Below are positions 1 to 8,907 of a stretch of 64,000 nt of DNA, piece after piece (position 1 is the stretch's first letter; each line of letters opens with the position of its first letter). The position numbers were made by a program, and so were the translations under genes. Source of the DNA: Bradyrhizobium glycinis (GTDB lineage Bacteria > Pseudomonadota > Alphaproteobacteria > Rhizobiales > Xanthobacteraceae); assembly GCF_016031655.1 (NCBI RefSeq), contig NZ_JACCHQ010000006.1, forward strand, positions 1 to 64,000, read 5' to 3'. A model generated the notes under the pieces. It searched no databases. It saw only the letters and a list, made by a program, of their open reading frames with translations, and had not been told where the DNA came from.

Positions 1-945
1 GGTGACGGTCAGATCCGCACCTGTCGAGCTCCTCAGCGTGACGGCGCCGCCCACAACGGTCGAGGCGGTCTGGCCGACGCTCGTGGCGATCGTCGCAGCA
101 CCGGAGCTGATGGCAACTGTCTTGACGCCGCTGGCGAGATCGATCGCGGTGAACAGATCGTCGACGGTTGCAAGCGTTGCCGGCGTGCCGGTGCTACCGA
201 GATAGACGGTGGTGTTGCCGCTGCCGTCGGTGACGAGATGGCCGCTGACGCCCGAACCGGCGGGAACACCGGTCGCCGCCGGCGCGACGCCGGCGCGGAA
301 GGTGATGGTCTTGCCGTTCACGGTCAGGGTGTCGCCGTCGGCGGGCTGGGCGTTGCCGGCCAGACCGCTGGCGCTCGTGCCGTTGGTGGCGATCAGGGTG
401 ATGGTGCCTTCCAGGGTCGTGGTACCGCCGGCGCCGGTCGTTGCGCCAGTGCCTGCGAAGACGCCGATGCTGGCGCCGAGCGTGCTGGTGCCGGTCGCCG
501 CGGTGATGCCGCCGGCCGCGCCGCTATAGAGCACGTTGCTGCTCGCGGTGGCGCTGGCGAAGCTCGTCGTGCCACGCAGGTCGGCCGCCGTCGCTCCGGA
601 GATGGTGGCGGAGACGTTGGACTTGGTGGAATAGCCGACCGTGGTCTGCAGCGCCTGGTTGGCGATCGACTTGGCAGAGTCGATCAGCTTCTGCAGCGAG
701 GTGATGCCGGTGTTGGCAGCCTGCAGCACCTGCACGCCGTTGGCGATGCCGTCAAGCAGGTTGTTGATGTCGCTGGCGCGGTTGTCGAGCGACTGGGCGG
801 TGAAGAAGTTGGTGGGATTGTCCAGGGCCGAGTTGACGCTCTTGCCGGTCGACAGACGGTTCTGCGTGGTGGCGAGAAGGTCAGCGGTGGACTGGAGAGA
901 CAGCAGGTTCTGACGAACCGATGCGGAGAGGACGATACCGGACAT
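1..945 (-). CDS. fliC: Flagellin, N-terminal part (cut by window edge)
   Basis: Structural subunit of the flagellar filament, exported by the flagellar type III system. The visible 315 residues begin MSGIVLSASVRQNLLSLQ and continue with the flagellin D0/D1 coiled-coil signature (LLATTQNRLSTGKSVNSALD, then LDGIANGVQVLQAANTGI). After about residue 110 comes a low-complexity Gly/Ala/Thr region and an insert starting DTLTVNGKTITF. The C-terminal D0/D1 half lies beyond position 1, so this is a long flagellin (over 315 residues), which fits the thick-filament type of Bradyrhizobium better than a short lateral flagellin (inference). The start is the ATG at 945, preceded by an AAAGGTAA ribosome-binding site that sits in a small hairpin. 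It is divergent from flbT. Confidence 0.93.
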   Translation of the reverse strand, partial: MSGIVLSASVRQNLLSLQSTADLLATTQNRLSTGKSVNSALDNPTNFFTAQSLDNRASDINNLLDGIANGVQVLQAANTGITSLQKLIDSAKSIANQALQTTVGYSTKSNVSATISGATAADLRGTTSFASATASSNVLYSGAAGGITAATGTSTLGASIGVFAGTGATTGAGGTTTLEGTITLIATNGTSASGLAGNAQPADGDTLTVNGKTITFRAGVAPAATGVPAGSGVSGHLVTDGSGNTTVYLGSTGTPATLATVDDLFTAIDLASGVKTVAISSGAATIATSVGQTASTVVGGAVTLRSSTGADLTVT

Positions 946-1265: not shown

Positions 1266-1706
1266 ATGGCCCTCAAGGTCGAGCTCAAACCGCACGAACG
1301 CATCATCGTCGGCAATTCCGTGATCACCAACACCGACCAGCGGGCCCGTCTCCTGATCGATGGCGAGAACGTGCCGATCCTGCGCGAGCGCGACATCCTC
1401 ACGCCGGAGACCGCCAACACGCCTGCCAAGCTCGTCTATCTGGCGGTCCAGCTTATGTACATCTCCCCAGATCCGCAGACCCAGCACGGCACTTATTTCA
1501 ATCTGGTGCGGGACATCGTCACCGCGGTGCCGAGCTCCTGGCCGATCATCGAAGGCATCAACAACAATATCCTGAACGGCGACCTCTACCGGGCGCTGAA
1601 GGAAGCCCGCAAGCTGATCGCCTATGAGGAGAAGCTGCGCAACCAGTTCGAGGCCACTCATCCCAAGGCGGCAGCGGACAAGGACGACGTCAGCACCGCG
1701 GCCTAA
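1266..1706 (+). CDS. flbT: Flagellar biosynthesis repressor FlbT
   Basis: FlbT family (146 residues, usual length about 130-150). It is a cytoplasmic post-transcriptional regulator that couples flagellin translation to hook completion; in Caulobacter it represses flagellin mRNA, while in some rhizobia it acts positively. The N-terminus MALKVELKPHERIIVGNSVI and the central LLIDGENVPILRERDILTP followed by LAVQLMYI match the family closely. The ATG at 1266 has a GGAGA-type ribosome-binding site. The gene is divergent from the flagellin and closed by a strong hairpin, so it is probably monocistronic here. No flaF is adjacent. Confidence 0.93.
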   Translation: MALKVELKPHERIIVGNSVITNTDQRARLLIDGENVPILRERDILTPETANTPAKLVYLAVQLMYISPDPQTQHGTYFNLVRDIVTAVPSSWPIIEGINNNILNGDLYRALKEARKLIAYEEKLRNQFEATHPKAAADKDDVSTAA

Positions 1707-1722
1707 TACAGGCATTCGCGCC

Positions 1723-1766
1723 AACGACAACGGCCCCGGATCGCCTTCGGGGCCGTTGTCGTTTCA
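1723..1766. terminator. Strong hairpin terminator between flbT and the PLP decarboxylase
   Basis: A perfect 15-bp inverted repeat (1723-1737 against 1749-1763, 11-nt loop) follows the flbT stop by 16 nt and precedes the end of the convergent decarboxylase gene. The right arm ends in GTTGTCGTTTC on the plus strand. It probably terminates transcription from both sides. Confidence 0.8.
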
Positions 1767-1779
1767 GGCGTTCGTCAAG

Positions 1780-3276
1780 CTATTGCGCCGCAAGCGGCGG
1801 CGCGTCGACCTCGATCACTCCGCCGCTCCGCTGTCCACCGAACTGCAGCACGGCCGCGACCAGCGCATCGATGTCCGCCTCCTCTGTGCGGTGATTGACG
1901 ATCGCGGCGCGGATCGCGAACTTTCCGTCCAGCGTCGTGCTCGAGGGCGCGGCGATGCCGGACTCCTGGACGTCGGCGACGATCTCGCGATTGACCGCAT
2001 CGCCGCTGCGGTAGCGGAAGCAGACGATGTTGAGATTGACCGGCGCCAGCAATTCCAGCCGCGGTTCGGCCAGCACCCGGGCCTCTAGATATCTGGCGAG
2101 CGCGCAGCTTCGTGCGATTGCCCGGCCCAGCCGATCGGTGCCGAACGTCTTCAGCGTGAACCACGTCTTCAGCGCGCGAAAGCCGCGCGACAGATCGGGA
2201 CCGAGATCGCAAGGCCAGACCGCGCCCGCCGCAAGCCCCCTCGCCGCGCGACTGAGATAGGCCGCCGGCTGCGCGAAGGCCTGCCGATGCTGCTCGCCGT
2301 CGCGCACCAGCAGGAAGCCAGCGTCGTACGGAACCTGCCCCCATTTGTGGAAATCGAGTGCGATGGAATCCGCAAGCTCGATGCCGCCGAGCAGGGGCGC
2401 AAGCTCCGGCGACAGGATTGCGAGCGCACCGAAAGCGCCGTCGACGTGAAACCAGATTCCTTCCTCGCGGCATAGTGCAGCAATCGCCCTGAGGTCGTCG
2501 ATCGCCCCGATATCGACCGTGCCGGCGGATGCGACCACCAGGAAAGGCTTGAAGCCGACCTCGCAATCGACCGCGATCTGCGCGCGCAATGCGGCAACGT
2601 CGATGCGATGATCGGCATCGACTGCGATCTTGCGCAGCGCATCGGTGCCGAGCCCGGCAATGTCCATCGCCCTCGAGATGCAGCCATGCGCTGCCCGCGA
2701 CGTATAGGCCGTGAGCAGCGCACCGTCATTGCCGATGCCGTGCTGCCGCGCCAGCGTGCCGAGCGCGGTGGTGCGCGCCACCAGCACGGCCATCAGATTG
2801 GCCATCGACGTGCCCGTGACGAAGACGCCGCTTGCGCTCTCGGGAAAGAGGAACAGGCGGCGCATCCAGTCGACGATCTGGCGCTCCACCTCGATCGGCA
2901 TGTGGTCGCGTCCGCCGAGATTGGCGTTGAGGCCGGCGGCGAGCATCTCCGCGATCATGCCGACGGCGGTGCCGCCGCCATGCACCCAGCCCATGAAGCC
3001 GGGATGGACGTTGCCGGTCGCATAGGGCGCGACATGCTCGGAATATTCGCGATAGACCTCGGCGAGGTCGCTCGCCTCGCGCGGCACGTCCGACCTGAAT
3101 GCCGCGCGGACGTCATCTGGGATCGGCCGCCAGACGGGGCGCGCCCGGACGTTGGCGATGCCGTCGATCGTCTCGTCCAGCATGCGATGGGCCAGCGCGC
3201 GAAACTCGCTCCAGTCCTGCGGATCGAGCGGGGTATCCGTGACGGAGCTTTGCGTATTGCGGATGATCTCGTTCAT
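1780..3276 (-). CDS. PLP-dependent (group II-like) amino acid decarboxylase
   Basis: 498-residue fold-type I PLP enzyme of the pyridoxal-dependent decarboxylase family (aromatic-L-amino-acid, glutamate and 2,4-diaminobutyrate decarboxylase group). Visible catalytic residues: the ring-stacking His197 (SRAAHGC), cofactor-binding Asp279 (FHVDGAFGA) and Schiff-base Lys311 (LDFHKWGQVPYDAG). The early PGFMGWVHGGG stretch matches the substrate region of the family. All key residues are present, so it should be active; the substrate cannot be read from sequence. The ATG at 3276 overlaps the stop of the ATP-grasp gene in an ATGA, implying translational coupling. It is the last gene of a four-gene operon embedded in flagellar genes. 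Confidence 0.85.
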   Translation of the reverse strand: MNEIIRNTQSSVTDTPLDPQDWSEFRALAHRMLDETIDGIANVRARPVWRPIPDDVRAAFRSDVPREASDLAEVYREYSEHVAPYATGNVHPGFMGWVHGGGTAVGMIAEMLAAGLNANLGGRDHMPIEVERQIVDWMRRLFLFPESASGVFVTGTSMANLMAVLVARTTALGTLARQHGIGNDGALLTAYTSRAAHGCISRAMDIAGLGTDALRKIAVDADHRIDVAALRAQIAVDCEVGFKPFLVVASAGTVDIGAIDDLRAIAALCREEGIWFHVDGAFGALAILSPELAPLLGGIELADSIALDFHKWGQVPYDAGFLLVRDGEQHRQAFAQPAAYLSRAARGLAAGAVWPCDLGPDLSRGFRALKTWFTLKTFGTDRLGRAIARSCALARYLEARVLAEPRLELLAPVNLNIVCFRYRSGDAVNREIVADVQESGIAAPSSTTLDGKFAIRAAIVNHRTEEADIDALVAAVLQFGGQRSGGVIEVDAPPLAAQ

Positions 3277-4526
3277 GCTGCGCTTTCCCTGCCCGTCTTT
3301 GCGTGCCGCGACAGCATCGCCGTGAACGCGACAAAGATCTTGCGCATCTGCGGCGGCTTGTAGGGAAACACGACCGGCGAATCCATGTTGTGCACGACGG
3401 CGGTGTTGTCGGCCTCGAACACCAGAAGCTCGCCGGCCGCGTTCTCGGCGCAATCGACGATGAAATAGTCGAGGCCGACGCGCCGGCTCATCTCCTCCAG
3501 CGCGTTTCCGTGGCGCGCGCCGAAGGCATGGTCGAAGTCGCGCATGAAGACGGCTTCCTCGGCCCGCTTCTCTTCGCTGAAGGCCATGTACGCGTTGAGA
3601 TACCAGATGTCCCAACGGTCGGCGATCGCCATGTGGCACGCGTACGGCTTGCCGTCGACGATGGCGAGGCGATACTTGCGGTAGAGCCCGTCGGGGCTCA
3701 CATAATCGACGAAGCGTGCGACGAAGAAGTCCTGCTCTTTCCGTTCGGCGAGATAGGCCGCGATAGCTGCCGCATCGTCGAGCTTCGCGAGCCCGACGCC
3801 GGCATGCGAGCCGCGCGGCCGTGCGATCATCGGAAAGTGCAATTCGCCCGCAATGTCCTCGCATGCGATCCGCGCCTGCGCGAGATCCGATAATTGCGCG
3901 CGCGTTGCGTGGATGGTCGCGGGAATGTCGAGGCCGGGCACGTCCATCAGCAGCCGATACAGCTTGTCGCGATCGAGATTGCCGATGCGATCGGGGCGAT
4001 TGAGCAGCGGCCGCGGCCAGTGCGGCGCGGCCTCTTCGATCAGCGCGAGCGCCTCACGGCATTCCTCGGAATCGGACGCGACCACGATGGCCACGTCGTG
4101 CTCCGGCAAGGTCTCGGGCAAACCGACGCCCTTGATCACATAGAGGGTCAACAGCTCGACATCGGAGCCTTCGAGCAGGAAATCAATCGGCGTGTTGCCG
4201 CCCATGTCGATGTCGGCTGCAAGCGCGAGCAGGCGCAGGCCCGACTTCGGAGCCGCGCTAGGCGTTCGGAACAATTGATGGAAGGCCAGCACCTCGGATT
4301 GGATCGCAAGCCCCCGATCCTTGTCGCCCAGCAGCTGGGTGATCAACGACAGGTCCAGCCCCTCGCCCGCCAGCGCGGTCCCCGCCGCGATGCGCGCGAC
4401 GAGCTGGTCGCGCAACGGATGCAGATCGACGCCTTCGAAGGCCCGGCGCGTCAGCTCTGCAAAGCCGATGCGGTCGGCATAGTTCGCTGCGGCGAGGCCG
4501 ACCGGCGCGGAAACCGGATGCTGCAT
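3273..4526 (-). CDS. ATP-grasp domain protein, putative carboxylate-amine ligase
   Basis: 417-residue cytoplasmic protein. The C-terminal half looks like an ATP-grasp fold of RimK/glutathione-synthetase type: HFPMIARPRGSHAGVGLAKL (ATP-binding strand and loop), QDFFVARFVDY, a basic YRKYRLAIVDGKPY, and an acidic metal-binding end LLVFEADNTAVVHN. The N-terminal about 180 residues carry a Rossmann-like preATP-grasp region (LRLLALAADIDMGGNTPIDF). Such enzymes join a carboxylate to an amine using ATP. One base separates it from the upstream PLP gene and it overlaps the downstream decarboxylase by 4 nt, so the three are probably made together. The product is unknown; a peptide or amide of an amino acid or amine is a reasonable guess. 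Confidence 0.75.
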   Translation of the reverse strand: MQHPVSAPVGLAAANYADRIGFAELTRRAFEGVDLHPLRDQLVARIAAGTALAGEGLDLSLITQLLGDKDRGLAIQSEVLAFHQLFRTPSAAPKSGLRLLALAADIDMGGNTPIDFLLEGSDVELLTLYVIKGVGLPETLPEHDVAIVVASDSEECREALALIEEAAPHWPRPLLNRPDRIGNLDRDKLYRLLMDVPGLDIPATIHATRAQLSDLAQARIACEDIAGELHFPMIARPRGSHAGVGLAKLDDAAAIAAYLAERKEQDFFVARFVDYVSPDGLYRKYRLAIVDGKPYACHMAIADRWDIWYLNAYMAFSEEKRAEEAVFMRDFDHAFGARHGNALEEMSRRVGLDYFIVDCAENAAGELLVFEADNTAVVHNMDSPVVFPYKPPQMRKIFVAFTAMLSRHAKTGRESAA

Positions 4527-4527
4527 C

Positions 4528-6156
4528 TCACACCTCGAACGCGGACTTTACCGGCACGGCCGCCGCTGCGCCACCGGCGAGCAGCAGCTCGATCTTCACC
4601 AGGACGTGGGCGATCTGGTCGAGGAGGTGCTGCACATTGTGTTGCGCCTCCGCCCTGTCCGGCGACCAGGCCTCAGTCACGAGCCGCGCGCCGACGCAGA
4701 GGCGCAGCACGGCCTGCGGCGTCTCGTCCTGCCGCTCCAGCCGCACCGACTGGCCGATCAGGCAGCGCTGCGCGGCGACCTGACGGTCCTCCGCGCTGCC
4801 GTTGATCTCTTCGCTGACGTCACGCGCCAGCGCGCGATGAACAGAAGTGGTGTCGGCAATAGACACTGGCTTGCCGCCGCGCAGCAGCATGAACGGAAAG
4901 ATGGTCGGTTGCGCGAATTCCTCGTCGTCGATGCCGGCCACGTGGGTCGTGGCCGAAACAGCGCGCAACGACGGCGACAATGCGATCATGCTGTCGATGC
5001 CGGCAGCGAGCTCGGCGAGCATCCCGGCGCGGAAAGCCGCGGGCACGGCGTAGTAGCGGCCGATCTCGGCCAGCGCCGCCTCCCAGCGCAGCCATTGACC
5101 GAAATTCGGACGACGTTCGAAGCGCGAACGCAGCGCCGTCCAGGCCATCGGCCAGTCGCAGCGGCCGGCGTAGTCGAAGATGCCAGGCGCGATTCCCTCG
5201 ATGCGATCGATCGATCGCGAGAGGCCCTTCGGCACCAGCAGCGCACCGCTGAAGGCAGGTCCGCCGAAGAATTTTGAGCCGGTGATCAGCACCATATAGC
5301 CGCGGTCGAGATAGGAGCGCAGCCGCCGGCGGCCGAGCCGGGCCTGGCAGGCGTCGATGACGATCTGGACCTTGCGCGGCCAGCGTCGCGCGATGTCGTC
5401 GAGGCAGGCCGTGCTGGGTGCACGCCATCCGAGCTTGGAGCAATCCATGATCTGGAGCAGCACGGGCGCGCCTTGCGCGATCGTGGCCTCGACCGCATGC
5501 AGCACCGCTTCATCGGCATCGGCGCGCATCGCGATCCCGGCCCCCGGCGCGCGCAATGGCAGCGAGATGCTGGCGCCGGCCAGCCCCGCGACCGCGCCGT
5601 CCTTGCGAACCGCAAAGCCGCTCGCCGTCAGGGTGCTGAAATGATGTCCACGCGCGGTATGGGCCGTGCCGCTGCCGGTCTGGTCGGCGCCGACCACGAT
5701 CGTCACAGGCCGCGCGCCGAGCATCGTGCTCGCCAGGAAAAGGGCATGGAGCTGGGAGTCCGTGCCGGATGGCGAGAACACCACGTCGACGCGCGGCGAG
5801 AGCTGGAGATGACCGCGCAGCTCGTGGCGCATATCCTCGCAGCGTGCATCGAAAGCGAGCTCGACCTCGTCGAGCAGGCACTTGTGCATCAGCTCTTCGC
5901 ACGCCAGCGCGGCTCGGTCATAGGCCGCCTGCGAGATCGTCGACGCGGTCGAGGAGGCGAAATTCCAGACCTCCGGCTCCGGTGAAGCCGGGCAGCCATA
6001 GGCGTTGACGCGGCCCGTGGGATCGAGCGCCAGGCGCGGATCTCCGCCGGAAACGAGCAGCGTGTCGAGCGGCGTGAAGAGGTCGCGCAGGCGATAACGC
6101 GAGCCGCCGTCGGCGGCGCGTTGCATCTCAGGCCGAGGGGATGCGCCGCCGCTCAT
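4528..6156 (-). CDS. PLP-dependent fold-type I enzyme of unknown substrate
   Basis: About 542 residues from the ATG at 6156. The PLP sites are clear: SPSGTDSQLH (phosphate cup, about 128-137), IVIDACQARLG with Asp268 for the pyridine nitrogen, and ITGSKFFGGPAFSGALLVP with Lys295 as the Schiff base. The SK-FFGGP context resembles class V aminotransferase/lyase-like enzymes. Two PLP enzymes in one operon suggest a dedicated amino acid-derived product. The start is uncertain: an ATG at 6180 would overlap the upstream gene by 14 nt, and one at 6126 is also possible; none has a strong ribosome-binding site. The stop lies one base before the ATP-grasp start. Confidence 0.72.
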   Translation of the reverse strand: MSGGASPRPEMQRAADGGSRYRLRDLFTPLDTLLVSGGDPRLALDPTGRVNAYGCPASPEPEVWNFASSTASTISQAAYDRAALACEELMHKCLLDEVELAFDARCEDMRHELRGHLQLSPRVDVVFSPSGTDSQLHALFLASTMLGARPVTIVVGADQTGSGTAHTARGHHFSTLTASGFAVRKDGAVAGLAGASISLPLRAPGAGIAMRADADEAVLHAVEATIAQGAPVLLQIMDCSKLGWRAPSTACLDDIARRWPRKVQIVIDACQARLGRRRLRSYLDRGYMVLITGSKFFGGPAFSGALLVPKGLSRSIDRIEGIAPGIFDYAGRCDWPMAWTALRSRFERRPNFGQWLRWEAALAEIGRYYAVPAAFRAGMLAELAAGIDSMIALSPSLRAVSATTHVAGIDDEEFAQPTIFPFMLLRGGKPVSIADTTSVHRALARDVSEEINGSAEDRQVAAQRCLIGQSVRLERQDETPQAVLRLCVGARLVTEAWSPDRAEAQHNVQHLLDQIAHVLVKIELLLAGGAAAAVPVKSAFEV

Positions 6157-6166
6157 CCCGAAGGGC

Positions 6167-6952
6167 TCACGCCGCGGCATCGGCCGCCGCCGCAGGCGCG
6201 GCTGCGAATTGCGAGGCGACGTCGCCGTGGAACACCGACGGCCCGACGTGGTCGAGCGGGCTCTGAATGTCGGCCCAGATCTCGCCGCCGATGTCGGTCC
6301 AGCGCTTGCAGAAGGCGAAGTCCTCGGACAGATACGTGCCGGTCGCCGGATCGATGATACATTCGAACAGCGCGAACCGGTTCCGGCTCGCCGCCAGCGT
6401 ATCGTTCGAATGCTCGCGGAAGAATTGCAGGCTCGCATAGTCCGGGTGGCGGCACATCGCCTCCAGCACGTGACGCCGGATCATCAGGAAGCCGGTGCCG
6501 GCATAGCGCACGCGGGTGAATCCGTTGACCACCACGATGCGGTCGGGATCCTCGATCTCGAGCACGTAGTCGAGCGAGGCGGCCGGCACGTCGGCCCGAC
6601 CTGCCTGGATCGCCCGCGCGGCCTTGTCCCAGTTGACCCGCTTGATCGGATAGCAGCCGGCGACGACGTCCGCGCCGCATTCGATCAGGCGGAACACCTG
6701 CTCCGGCTTGAAGCCGATATCGGCATCGATGAACAGGAAATGCGTCGCCTTCGGATCGTCCAGAAACATCGCGGCCAGATTGGCGCGCGCACGGGTGATC
6801 AGCGCGTCGCCGTCCCGCAAGAGAACCTTGAGCTCGAGATTGGACATGCCGTGCACGGCCCGCTGCAGCGCGAAGATCGAGCTCGCATAGATGCTCGACA
6901 CCTGCCCGCCGAAGCAAGGCGTCGCCACCACCAGCTGCATCTTGTCCGACAT
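6167..6952 (-). CDS. Glycosyltransferase-like (GT-A) protein, first gene of the operon
   Basis: 261 residues. The N-terminus MQLVVATPCFGGQVSSIYAS resembles nucleotide-sugar glycosyltransferase starts, followed by ALITRARANLAAMFL and a DxD-type motif FLFIDADIGF (about residues 73-82), as in GT-A enzymes. Later YAGTGFLMIRR and YLSEDFAFCKRW could form the acceptor site, and the tail is Ala-rich. No signal peptide or membrane segment is visible, so it is probably cytoplasmic. The ATG at 6952 has a GGCGGAG ribosome-binding site. It opens the four-gene minus-strand operon and has a CtrA-type box just upstream. In a flagellar locus, flagellin or flagellar-part glycosylation is one possibility, but the donor and acceptor are unknown. 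Confidence 0.72.
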   Translation of the reverse strand: MSDKMQLVVATPCFGGQVSSIYASSIFALQRAVHGMSNLELKVLLRDGDALITRARANLAAMFLDDPKATHFLFIDADIGFKPEQVFRLIECGADVVAGCYPIKRVNWDKAARAIQAGRADVPAASLDYVLEIEDPDRIVVVNGFTRVRYAGTGFLMIRRHVLEAMCRHPDYASLQFFREHSNDTLAASRNRFALFECIIDPATGTYLSEDFAFCKRWTDIGGEIWADIQSPLDHVGPSVFHGDVASQFAAAPAAAADAAA

Positions 6953-7023: not shown

Positions 7024-8907
7024 TTACAGGAACTTGACGAGCGAGAGCTGCGCCAGGTTCGAGGTCACTTGGTAGGACGCCTGCAGAGCGTTCTGCAGCG
7101 CCAGGATCTCGCTCGCGACCTGGTCGGGCGACGCCGATTCCGCCTGGTCGATGACGGTCTGGAGCTGCGCCTTGGCCTGGGTCTGGCGCGTGCTTGCGTC
7201 CTTCATCGTGTTCTGGGCCATAGCGATGTCGGTCTGGATGTCCTCGATGCGCTGCTGTCCGGGCTGCTGGGTCAGCGCCTGGGTCACCCGCAAGCTCAGC
7301 GCCGAGACCTGCCCGCCCGAATATTGCCCGGTCGGCGAGGTCGAGAAGGTGCCGAACACCGCGATCGCCTGCAATTGCCGCCGGATCGCATCCTCATTCG
7401 CCTGGGCGCCGTACTGCACCGTCACGGCATCGTCGACCCGCGCCATCGCGGTCGAGCGCGGCGAGCCGGGCCCGTCATTGCCGAGGTACCACTTCACGGT
7501 GGTGGCCGAGCCGTTCACCAGCGTGGTCGCCGAGCTCGCCGGCGAGGAGCCGACGCGCAGCGGCGGCTGCGTGGCGGTCACCGGCGTCGAGCCGAACCCG
7601 AGCGCGCTCAGCGCGCCGGTGTTCGACGTCGTGATGTTGAGGCTCGCCGCATCGTCGGTGTTGATCGTGATCGAGCCGCCATGGACCGTCGAGGGCTTCG
7701 ACGTCCCGGTGATCGCGTCGACCTTGCTCAGCAGGGTCTGGATGCTGTCGGTGACGTTGAGCTGGTTGCCGGTCGCGCCCGAGGCCACGAAGGTCAGCGT
7801 GGTGCCGTTGACGGTGATGGTATCGCCCGCGACGAAGCCCGGCGAGATCGAGTCCGAGGGGCTCGCGCCCGACAGCGCCGTCGCGCCGGTGACCGGGGTC
7901 GCCGGCGCCGCCTGGTTGTTGACGGGGGTGCCGATCGCAGAGCTCGCGGTGTTGAAGAAGTTGTCGCCCGCAACGATCGCCGATGCCGCCACCAGCGAGG
8001 TGTTGGCGAGCTTCTGGATCGCGGTGTTGAGCGCCGTGTTGAGGTTCGTGGCGGTATTGTTCGGGTTGACGGGCGTGCTCGCATCGATCGCGAAGCTGCC
8101 GAGCGGCGTCGGCATCGCCGAGGACGCCGTCAGGTCGATCTGCTCGGTCGTGCCGTCCGGCAGGGTGAACTGAATGCTGAGCTTGTCGCCGTTGTTCGGA
8201 TTGACGCCGTTGAGATCGACCGAGAACGACACCGGCGAGCCGCTCGGGCCGGTGACGGTCGCGCCTGATAGCGTCGAGGACACCGCCTTGATCTTGAGGC
8301 CGAACGGCGACCCGGCGACGTCCTCCGACACCTGCACGGAGCTTGCCGTCGGCTGCGTCTGCACCAGGCGGCCCATGCCGCTGGCCCCTAAGTCCGCGGC
8401 CTGGCGCTCGGCCATGACGATCTTGAAGCCGGCCTGCGTCGTGGTGCCGTTGATGATGTCGCCGGCATTGGCCACCGACTGGGTGTTGACGGCCGTTCCG
8501 GAGAACAGATAGCGGTTGCCGGTCTGCGTGTTGAGGACGCCGACCATCGAGCCGAACTGAGCCGCCGCGGTGTTCTGCGCGATCGTCTGGCCGTTGACGT
8601 TGAGATCCTGCGCGGTGTTGGCGGAGCCCGTCTGCACCGTGCTGCGGATCTTGGTCAGCGATTGCAGCGCGGTGTTGGCGAGGTTGATGCTGACGTTGAC
8701 GTTGGTGATCGTGTCGGTATAGGCGGCGATGTTGGAGAGCTGCGCGCGGCCGGCGATCGCAAAGCCCTCGTTGGTGCCCATGCCGGAATAGTTCTGCGAC
8801 AGCTTGCCGGTCGAAAGCTGCGTCGAGAGGTCGGTGAGCTGCTGATTGATGTTGCGGATCTGGGCGCCGAGAATCGACGAGGAGTAGTTGATGCTGGCGA
8901 TCGACAT
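7024..8907 (-). CDS. flgL: Flagellar hook-filament junction protein FlgL
   Basis: 627-residue flagellin-like axial protein that joins hook and filament (HAP3). The N-terminus is of flagellin/FlgL type (ILGAQIRNINQQLTDLSTQL, then LSTGKLSQNYSGMG), with TGNRYLFSGTAVNTQ characteristic of FlgL. The C-terminus ends in the matching coiled coil (LQNALQASYQVTSNLAQLSL). The middle is a long Thr/Ser/Gly-rich insert, so it is much longer than enterobacterial FlgL (about 317). Residues around DTITVNGTTLTFVASG to ALSALGFGS form a module that is also present in FlgE of this window. It starts at an ATG 21 nt after the flgK stop and is probably co-transcribed with flgK and flgE. Confidence 0.88.
   Translation of the reverse strand: MSIASINYSSSILGAQIRNINQQLTDLSTQLSTGKLSQNYSGMGTNEGFAIAGRAQLSNIAAYTDTITNVNVSINLANTALQSLTKIRSTVQTGSANTAQDLNVNGQTIAQNTAAAQFGSMVGVLNTQTGNRYLFSGTAVNTQSVANAGDIINGTTTQAGFKIVMAERQAADLGASGMGRLVQTQPTASSVQVSEDVAGSPFGLKIKAVSSTLSGATVTGPSGSPVSFSVDLNGVNPNNGDKLSIQFTLPDGTTEQIDLTASSAMPTPLGSFAIDASTPVNPNNTATNLNTALNTAIQKLANTSLVAASAIVAGDNFFNTASSAIGTPVNNQAAPATPVTGATALSGASPSDSISPGFVAGDTITVNGTTLTFVASGATGNQLNVTDSIQTLLSKVDAITGTSKPSTVHGGSITINTDDAASLNITTSNTGALSALGFGSTPVTATQPPLRVGSSPASSATTLVNGSATTVKWYLGNDGPGSPRSTAMARVDDAVTVQYGAQANEDAIRRQLQAIAVFGTFSTSPTGQYSGGQVSALSLRVTQALTQQPGQQRIEDIQTDIAMAQNTMKDASTRQTQAKAQLQTVIDQAESASPDQVASEILALQNALQASYQVTSNLAQLSLVKFL

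What the first reader, a model, noticed from the sequence alone, without database searches (positions are those of the whole stretch)
1780..6952. Uncharacterised four-gene biosynthetic operon inside the flagellar cluster
Seen: GT-A-like protein, PLP enzyme, ATP-grasp ligase and PLP decarboxylase are encoded back to back on the minus strand (gaps of 10 nt and 1 nt, then a 4-nt overlap), all with intact catalytic motifs, between flbT and flgL. Known: ATP-grasp enzymes link carboxylates to amines, PLP decarboxylases make amines, and GT-A proteins transfer sugars. Inference: the operon makes or attaches a small amino acid-derived or sugar group, perhaps a flagellin or flagellar-structure modification or a motility-linked metabolite. 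I know of no described pathway with this set.
Basis: partly seen in the sequence, partly recalled or inferred. Interest (0 to 1): 0.75.

Follow-up and report, generated by a model that had tools for sequence, protein, structure and literature searches.

The report
Flagellar-locus operon for amide-capped glycan
In many Bradyrhizobium, four uncharacterised enzyme genes (a sugar transferase, two vitamin-B6 enzymes and an amide-forming ligase) sit as one conserved operon between flagellar genes, and they most likely build and attach an amine-capped sugar on the flagellar filament, though this has yet to be tested.

Summary
In detail: GT (6167-6952), a PLP enzyme (PLPX, 4528-6156), an ATP-grasp ligase (ATPG, 3273-4526) and a PLP decarboxylase (DEC, 1780-3276) form a tight minus-strand operon between flgL and flbT. 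Of 80 named loci found through PLPX (mostly Bradyrhizobium), all hold ATPG and DEC, and 67 have exactly the window's flagellar gene order. In 36 of 60 same-genus genomes the ligase lies near flbT; in 15 of 17 inspected operon-free relatives flgL adjoins flbT. Catalytic residues are invariant in near-full-length copies and all four genes are under purifying selection. PLPX matches no Pfam or NCBIfam family; its model has a class-V-like PLP fold. Outside the genus, DEC and ATPG are adjacent in several families and fused into one 884-aa protein in one; two Rhizobium plasmids carry ATPG-PLPX-DEC without flagellar neighbours. The GT family recurs beside flagellar genes in other families, including Acetobacteraceae. 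Four relatives have an FlmG-like TPR-glycosyltransferase and no PLPX. Best reading: an amine-amide-capped flagellar glycan, by analogy with the taurine-containing cap of Clostridium difficile type B flagellin. Substrates and target are inferred, not shown. A free small metabolite is the main rival.

The parts
6167..6952 (-). GT: GT-A-like glycosyltransferase, 261 aa, DAD motif at 76-78
   Evidence: (PHROG_1574, 6.4e-32)
4528..6156 (-). PLPX: class-V-like (fold type I) PLP enzyme of a family absent from Pfam and NCBIfam, 542 aa; PLP lysine K295, D268, Q271, H172, R485 (roles by motif)
3273..4526 (-). ATPG: ATP-grasp ligase, 417 aa; metal-site residues D358, E371, D373/N374 by motif
1780..3276 (-). 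DEC: group II PLP decarboxylase, 498 aa; K311, D279, H310, H197
1723..1763 (.). strong hairpin between the convergent ends of DEC and flbT, probable two-way terminator (no T-run and not in the list of the terminator scan, so inferred)
7024..8907 (-). flgL, upstream neighbour (context)
1266..1706 (+). flbT, convergent downstream neighbour (context)
   Evidence: PF07378 1.1e-41
1..945 (-). flagellin gene, cut by the window edge (context)

Best explanation
The operon makes and attaches an amine-capped (amide-bearing) glycan on the subpolar flagellar filament. Proposed steps: (1) DEC decarboxylates an amino acid to a primary amine; (2) ATPG activates a carboxylate with ATP and couples it to that amine, forming an amide; (3) PLPX makes or tailors the second building block by a class-V PLP reaction such as amino transfer; (4) GT transfers the sugar part to flagellin or to a sugar already on it, in the cytoplasm before export. 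Shown: gene set, conservation, fold class of PLPX and (on a weak model) of GT, invariant catalytic residues, DEC-ATPG fusion in a relative, recurring flagellar context of GT. Inferred: that DEC and ATPG act in sequence, substrates, order, flagellin as target.
For: In 36 of 60 same-genus genomes (own included) an ATPG gene is found, and in 36 of 36 it lies within about 5 kb of flbT (coordinates). Of 80 named loci found through PLPX, 80 hold ATPG and DEC, 79 in the order PLPX-ATPG-DEC without another gene of the set between; 67 show the exact flgE-flgK-flgL-GT-PLPX-ATPG-DEC-flbT-fliC order. Near-full-length ORFs: GT 74, PLPX 79, ATPG 79, DEC 80 of 80. In G414, another family of the class, PLPX, flagellin, flbT, ATPG and DEC lie within 7 kb (L219). 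DEC and ATPG are one 884-aa protein in G431 (65% and 46% identity to the window's), next to PLPX. GT relatives lie beside flagellin or flbT in L173, L174, L199, L200, L209, L210 and, by a weak match, L217, and between fliJ and motB in 3 of 3 Acetobacteraceae plasmids fetched. One Bradyrhizobium has GT alone between flgL and flbT (L166). Six loci carry a TPR-glycosyltransferase of FlmG layout in the operon (L057, L059, L060, L062, L064; L156; Pfam of L057); FlmG modifies Caulobacter flagellins (PMC7591256 passages). Precedent: C. difficile mutants in a flagellin-locus ATP-grasp gene lack the terminal peptidylamido sugar (PMC5207246 passages); the cap is taurine, alanine and glycine (PMC5207245 abstract). 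Of 385 class genomes, 19 of 23 with an ATPG match have FliE against 196 of 362 without (Fisher p 0.006; 12 of 12 for matches below 1e-60, a cut chosen after seeing the list).
Against: ATPG-PLPX-DEC lies on R. tumorigenes and R. rhododendri plasmids with no flagellar gene seen within 8 kb; the G431 and G368 stretches also show no match to the flagellar queries used. PLPX relatives overlap NRPS or AMP-binding genes in the two annotated loci fetched. The operon was not found in 24 of 60 same-genus genomes although all 24 have an flbT match, 21 of them at 70% identity or more without a stop. GT is lost or truncated in some strains that keep the other three (L102, the same strain as L188; L110, L121, L123, L147), and PLPX or ATPG is broken in L143 and L089. 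12 of 18 GT stretches show no flagellar query match. Most ATPG relatives outside the genus (14 of 18 stretches) have no DEC beside them. The FliE link is confounded by phylogeny and genome size. No biochemical data.
Confidence: 0.5

Rival explanations
1. DEC, ATPG and PLPX make a free small molecule (an amine conjugate, signal or secreted metabolite). They sit in the flagellar locus for co-regulation with motility, and only GT acts on the flagellum.
For: Three-gene module on two Rhizobium plasmids without flagellar neighbours; PLPX relatives beside NRPS or AMP-binding genes; GT and the other three are separable: L166 has GT only, L188 and L123 have the three without an intact GT there.
Against: Flagellar linkage in 36 of 36 same-genus carriers; an FlmG-like gene sits in the same operon in six loci; G414 places the module around flagellin and flbT in another family.
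Confidence: 0.27
2. ATPG attaches the DEC-made amine directly to carboxylate side chains of flagellin or a hook-associated protein, guided by a TPR-like N-terminus, with GT making a separate modification.
For: Distant ATPG relatives are TPR-ATP-grasp fusions; a TPR-sulfotransferase (L065) or TPR-glycosyltransferase (L057 and kin) lies next to ATPG genes; the TPR part of FlmG binds flagellins; an R. tumorigenes homolog is annotated as TPR-containing.
Against: The N-terminus of ATPG itself was not recognised as TPR by Pfam or by profile A6 against the PDB, nor was that of the R. tumorigenes homolog by Pfam; similarity to the protein-modifying RimK family is weak (0.014).
Confidence: 0.12
3. The target is another flagellar or surface protein, for example the adjacent FlgL or FlgK, or an adhesin, not the flagellin.
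For: flgK and flgL are the upstream co-directional neighbours; in L174, L199 and L200 two GT relatives lie between flagellin and flgL genes; GT relatives elsewhere sit by a YadA-like adhesin (L183, named by eye), an autotransporter (L254) and a type I secretion system with a calcium-binding protein (L253).
Against: In L173, L209 and L210 the GT relatives abut flagellin genes, not hook genes.
Confidence: 0.08

Closest known systems
Clostridium difficile type B flagellin modification locus (GT1-GT3, CDR20291_0244-0247)
   Same: Enzymes near fliC: glycosyltransferases, an ATP-grasp carboxylate-amine ligase and an FdtB-like aminotransferase (a PLP enzyme by general knowledge); end product is a sugar with a cap of taurine, alanine and glycine (PMC5207246 passages, PMC5207245 abstract). 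Taurine is a decarboxylated amine (general knowledge).
   Different: There the ATP-grasp protein is PF13535, which Pfam does not find in ATPG; the word decarboxylase does not occur in the main text of PMC5207246; the Bradyrhizobium operon has a class-V-like PLP enzyme and one GT, and no FemAB-like or cyclodeaminase gene among its four.
FlmG system of Caulobacter (TPR + GT-B O-glycosyltransferase of flagellins)
   Same: Alphaproteobacterial cytoplasmic flagellin glycosylation; six variant Bradyrhizobium operons contain a TPR-glycosyltransferase of similar layout.
   Different: The window's GT is a small GT-A-like protein without TPR; the window operon has no TPR-GT; FlmG transfers pseudaminic acid (passages).
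Methanofuran/methylofuran start: MfnA decarboxylase + MfnD ligase
   Same: A PF00282-type PLP decarboxylase makes tyramine that a ligase couples to glutamate (PMC8141765 passages; that MfnD is ATP-grasp is from its stated similarity to MyfA and general knowledge).
   Different: DEC scores 87.1 against the MfnA model cut-off of 299.4; no GT; flagellar location.

Membership tests
Group II PLP decarboxylase (PF00282) | PF00282 above gathering score with PLP lysine and its aspartate | tested here: met
   219.9 bits against 27; K311, D279, H310, H197 in 108 of 108 near-full-length ORFs
A named decarboxylase subfamily (DABA, tyrosine, aspartate) | NCBIfam equivalog cut-off | tested here: not met
   best NF052646 176.5 against 900 bits; TIGR03812 87.1 against 299.4; substrate unknown
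ATP-grasp superfamily | profile similarity to a solved ATP-grasp enzyme and conserved acidic metal-site residues | tested here: met
   D-Ala-D-Ala ligase 1.7e-4 with profile A6; homolog L245 Synapsin_C 1.2e-4, 22.2 bits, just under its cut-off of 22.5; D358 and E371 in 112 of 112. Similarity is weak; the metal-site role is by motif, from general knowledge
Class-V PLP enzymes (fold type I) | fold match and PLP lysine, Asp, Gln, stacking His | tested here: met
   model pLDDT 79.9, pTM 0.84; Z 22.6, rmsd 3.6, 354 residues to NifS 5wt6, and class-V enzymes lead the VIA list; Foldseek ranks a carbon-sulfoxide lyase first and also lists group II decarboxylases high, so the class within fold type I is less sure than the fold; K295, D268, Q271, H172, R485 in 102 of 102
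Pfam Aminotran_5 sequence family | PF00266 match | tested here: not met
   no Pfam family for PLPX at E up to 1
GT-A glycosyltransferases | GT-A fold and DxD motif | tested here: met
   Z 9.4, rmsd 2.8, 131 residues to A197 (2c0n), glycosyltransferase entries in the ranks shown; D76 and D78 in 102 of 102. Weak model (pLDDT 58.5, pTM 0.62); in Foldseek only 3 matches at E up to 0.001, with nucleotidyltransferases and unrelated folds lower down
FlmG | N-terminal TPR plus C-terminal GT-B domain | tested here: not met
   window GT is 261 aa with no Pfam TPR; variant L057 11077-12696 has TPR plus Glyco_transf_9
C. difficile type B flagellin locus | GT plus ATP-grasp ligase near flagellin genes | tested here: met
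C. difficile type B flagellin locus | ATP-grasp protein of PF13535 | tested here: not met
   no Pfam family for ATPG at E up to 1
C. difficile type B flagellin locus | peptidylamido glycan on flagellin | not testable with these tools
   needs mass spectrometry
Methanofuran MfnA-MfnD | MfnD homology of ATPG | not tested
   no MfnD sequence compared

The most novel reading that the evidence does not exclude
DEC and ATPG (one fused protein in G431) form a new two-step protein-amidation module: an amino acid is decarboxylated and the amine is ligated straight onto flagellin carboxylates or its glycan, with TPR-ATP-grasp fusions in other bacteria being a wider, undescribed class of TPR-guided protein ligases.
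Probability: 0.12. Interest if true: 0.85.

Novelty: new variant of a known kind. Interest (0 to 1): 0.62.

Why it matters
If right, many Bradyrhizobium, legume symbionts among them, decorate their main swimming filament with a chemistry I found no description of in Alphaproteobacteria. That could bear on how plants see the flagellin, on flagellotropic phages and on filament stiffness. It would also give functions to a PLP enzyme family that Pfam and NCBIfam do not name and to a GT-A-like family left as 'hypothetical' in Acetobacteraceae flagellar clusters and of unknown function in phages (PHROG_1574).

Tried and rejected
Decayed or hitch-hiking genes: rejected for the operon as a whole by dN/dS 0.05-0.29 and invariant catalytic residues. 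PLPX is the least constrained (0.18-0.29), and single copies are lost or broken in some strains.

Anti-phage defence: PADLOC gives nothing for PLPX, ATPG and GT at E 0.01; only weak SspA/DndA matches for DEC, in the stretch shared by PLP enzymes.

Link to a flagellin length class: no clean split. With the operon there are flagellin ORFs of 414 aa (L058), about 510-536 aa and about 746-770 aa; without it 381-414, 507 and 749-752 aa. Many ORFs are cut by locus ends, and three of 812-904 aa (L057, L059, L167) may have an extended start.

Substrate of DEC from its nearest solved relatives: R. gnavus tryptophan decarboxylase 1.8e-62 (4obu, named so), Pseudomonas DOPA decarboxylase 4.6e-60, desferrioxamine decarboxylase DfoJ 6.9e-55, cysteine sulfinate decarboxylases 3.2e-35 and weaker. 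This leans away from taurine but decides nothing.

Sequence search of PLPX and GT against solved structures: nothing useful. Sigma-70 promoter scan: 0 sites; terminator scan: 4 sites against 5.2 expected by chance, none between flgL and GT.

Literature: no paper on this operon among those listed by searches for flagellin + ATP-grasp + decarboxylase (2 papers), Bradyrhizobium + flagellin + glycosylation (20 of 34 listed), Bradyrhizobium flagellar systems (20 listed), Bradyrhizobium + flagellin + post-translational modification (10 of 45 listed), five terms with PLP-dependent (0 papers), USDA 110 locus tags around bll5846, partly guessed from recall (3 papers), Acetobacter flagellar GT (6 of 15 listed) and (4 papers). 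PMC6406911 on Bradyrhizobium flagellar systems has no 'glycos', 'decarboxylase' or 'ATP-grasp' in its main text. Only open-licence papers are held, so this is not proof of absence.
Full report
What is there. Four minus-strand ORFs, GT 6167-6952, PLPX 4528-6156, ATPG 3273-4526 and DEC 1780-3276, follow flgL (7024-8907) and end against flbT (1266-1706, plus strand). A hairpin of -38.3 kcal/mol (z -6.07, 0 of 200 shuffles as good) separates DEC from flbT. The simple promoter and terminator scan found nothing between flgL and GT, so co-transcription with flgKL is possible but not shown.

What the proteins are. DEC is a PF00282 decarboxylase (5.6e-65), below every NCBIfam cut-off listed. PLPX has no Pfam or NCBIfam family; its model (pLDDT 79.9, pTM 0.84) matches NifS and class-V aminotransferases at Z 21.1-22.6 in the 50 rows shown, while Foldseek puts a carbon-sulfoxide lyase first and group II decarboxylases high as well. 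K295, D268, Q271 and R485 are invariant and H172 nearly so in a ten-sequence alignment with members down to 29-36% identity. ATPG has no Pfam family; a profile of 17 relatives matches D-Ala-D-Ala ligase at 1.7e-4, and a plasmid homolog matches Synapsin_C at 1.2e-4, just under its cut-off. GT has no Pfam family; its model is weak (pLDDT 58.5) but glycosyltransferases lead the matches (A197 Z 9.4, LH3, hyaluronan synthase) and its DAD motif is invariant. GT matches phage family PHROG_1574 (6.4e-32).

Conservation. ATPG matches in 37 of 100 relatives including the own genome: 36 of 60 of the same genus and one other. In 36 of 36 same-genus carriers a copy lies within about 5 kb of flbT (coordinates). 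In 28 such loci that I read with flanks, 20 have GT-PLPX-ATPG-DEC in window order; two (L058, L061) have PLPX before GT; L046 has a PLPX remnant; five are the TPR-GT variants below. The PLPX profile found 143 relatives in named genomes; the best 80 were kept, so PLPX is there by selection. All 80 also hold ATPG and DEC; in 79 the order PLPX-ATPG-DEC has nothing else of the set between (L156 has a TPR-GT, a GT and a second ATPG between). GT is next to PLPX in 78 of 80, but only as remnants in L102, L110, L121 and L147 and cut by the contig end in L149; L123 has none and L156 has it further on. Near-full-length ORFs exist for GT in 74, PLPX in 79, ATPG in 79 and DEC in 80 of 80. 67 of 80 show the exact window order. 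One record is labelled Frankia (L148) but has Bradyrhizobium-like genes and order. Of 24 same-genus genomes without an ATPG match, all have an flbT match, three (G023, G031, G052) only at 55-56% with a stop. I inspected 17 of these flbT loci (L157-L172, L190): in 15 flgL lies next to flbT with no operon gene between (in L161, L165 and L168 the flgL alignment stops about 555-620 nt short of flbT), L166 has GT alone between them, and in L167 no flgL match was seen beside flbT. dN/dS in eight comparisons is 0.05-0.11 for GT, 0.18-0.29 for PLPX, 0.15-0.22 for ATPG and 0.11-0.16 for DEC, against 0.05-0.21 for flgL, flgK and flbT.

Natural variants. Six loci carry a TPR-glycosyltransferase in the operon (L057, L059, L060, L062, L064, L156); PLPX is absent from four of these (L057, L059, L060, L064) and five have a second ATPG, not L064. 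Pfam finds TPR plus Glyco_transf_9 in the L057 copy, similar in layout to FlmG, whose TPR part binds flagellins (PMC7591256, passages). L046 keeps only 40 residues of PLPX; L188 keeps 54 residues of GT; L189 shows 27 residues of GT and no PLPX. So the parts can be uncoupled.

Outside the genus. In 385 genomes of the class (the own genome and a same-genus one included), ATPG matches in 23 and PLPX in 6. Twenty stretches were fetched; of 18 with an ATPG match DEC lies next to it in L219, L221 and L223 and is fused to it in L220; in the other 14 no DEC was seen, though L222 is cut by its contig end. L219 holds PLPX, flagellin, flbT, ATPG and DEC together (flagellin over the Pfam cut-off). L220 holds the 884-aa DEC-ATPG fusion and PLPX with no flagellar query match. 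Of six plasmid loci with ATPG fetched (of 7 records), two (R. tumorigenes L245, R. rhododendri L247) carry ATPG-PLPX-DEC with no flagellar gene nearby, and Paraburkholderia L241 pairs ATPG with a gene annotated serC. PLPX relatives are on 33 plasmid records; of five fetched, the two with annotation overlap an NRPS or AMP-binding gene by 4 nt (L239, L249).

The GT family and flagella. In 297 genomes of the order, GT matches in 27. Of 18 GT stretches fetched, six show flagellar genes within reach: L199, L200, L209, L210, L217 (a weak GT match, 4.8e-5) and the same-genus L218; twelve do not, with the limited set of flagellar queries used. L173 and L174 were found earlier. In three Acetobacteraceae plasmids the gene, annotated hypothetical, lies between fliJ and motB. 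Elsewhere it lies by a type I secretion system or an autotransporter. This points to a transferase for surface proteins, often flagellar.

Flagellated hosts. FliE is found in 215 of 385 class genomes; 19 of 23 with an ATPG match have it against 196 of 362 without (p 0.006); 12 of 12 for matches below 1e-60, a cut chosen after seeing the list; 6 of 6 for PLPX. Four ATPG-positive genomes lack it, all with weaker matches (G421, G432, G535, G616). Phylogeny and genome size were not controlled. Flagellin_N matched in 13 of 13 genomes asked, 12 above cut-off; these 13 are a chosen part of the carriers.

Mechanism. The fusion and tight adjacency of DEC and ATPG suggest that an amino acid is decarboxylated and the amine is then joined to a carboxylate through an acyl-phosphate. 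The chemistry resembles MfnA-MfnD in methanofuran synthesis (PMC8141765, passages). PLPX would supply or tailor another amino-bearing piece, and GT would place the product on the filament. The nearest described whole is C. difficile type B flagellin: mutants in GT3, the ATP-grasp gene 0245 and gene 0246 lack the terminal peptidylamido sugar (PMC5207246, passages), and the cap contains taurine, alanine and glycine (PMC5207245, abstract). ATPG is not of the same Pfam family as 0245, so this is likeness in logic, not membership. The subpolar filament of B. diazoefficiens is built of 68-kDa FliC1-4 (PMC4823718, passages); that this cluster serves that filament is my inference from flagellin size (746-763 aa in many loci) and flbT.

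Verdict. A real, conserved enzyme operon in the flagellar cluster that I found no study of. Flagellar glycan modification is the best reading at about one in two; a free metabolite is the main rival. New variant of a known kind.

Noticed in passing
L220 11124-13778 (G431): Natural 884-aa fusion of a PF00282 decarboxylase and the ATP-grasp ligase, next to a PLPX gene, with no flagellar gene seen nearby.
   Followed up: yes
L239 8992-10527 and L249 8992-10527: PLPX relatives overlap an NRPS or AMP-binding gene by 4 nt on Sinorhizobium medicae pSMED03 and a Rhizobium leguminosarum plasmid; 33 plasmid records carry a PLPX relative.
   Followed up: partly
L244 7974-8738, L251 5629-6402, L252 7938-8753: 'Hypothetical protein' between fliJ and motB in Komagataeibacter, Aristophania and Acetobacter belongs to the window's GT family.
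   Followed up: partly
PHROG_1574; hits H48-H62: Phage family of unknown function is homologous to GT; 65 phage records match, including Caulobacter phage Cr30 and Sinorhizobium phages.
   Followed up: no
L067 8183-9847 (-) and 10089-11648 (+), L068, L074: Divergent pairs of TPR-ATP-grasp fusion proteins with no flagellar query match nearby in Bradyrhizobium, function unknown.
   Followed up: partly
L065 7844-9079 and 9079-10860: TPR-sulfotransferase gene next to an ATPG gene (48% identity) in another family of the order.
   Followed up: no
G000:C12:51142-58978 (L215): Several large TPR proteins in tandem that match the TPR part of the variant TPR-glycosyltransferase, in the window's own genome on another contig.
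   Followed up: no
L148: Record titled Frankia sp. RB7 carries a Bradyrhizobium-type flagellar cluster; probably mislabelled.
   Followed up: no
G000:C7:1-3016 and window 1-945: Contigs C7 and C46 both end in near-identical flagellin sequence (100% over 239 bases), so the flagellin array looks split by the assembly.
   Followed up: no
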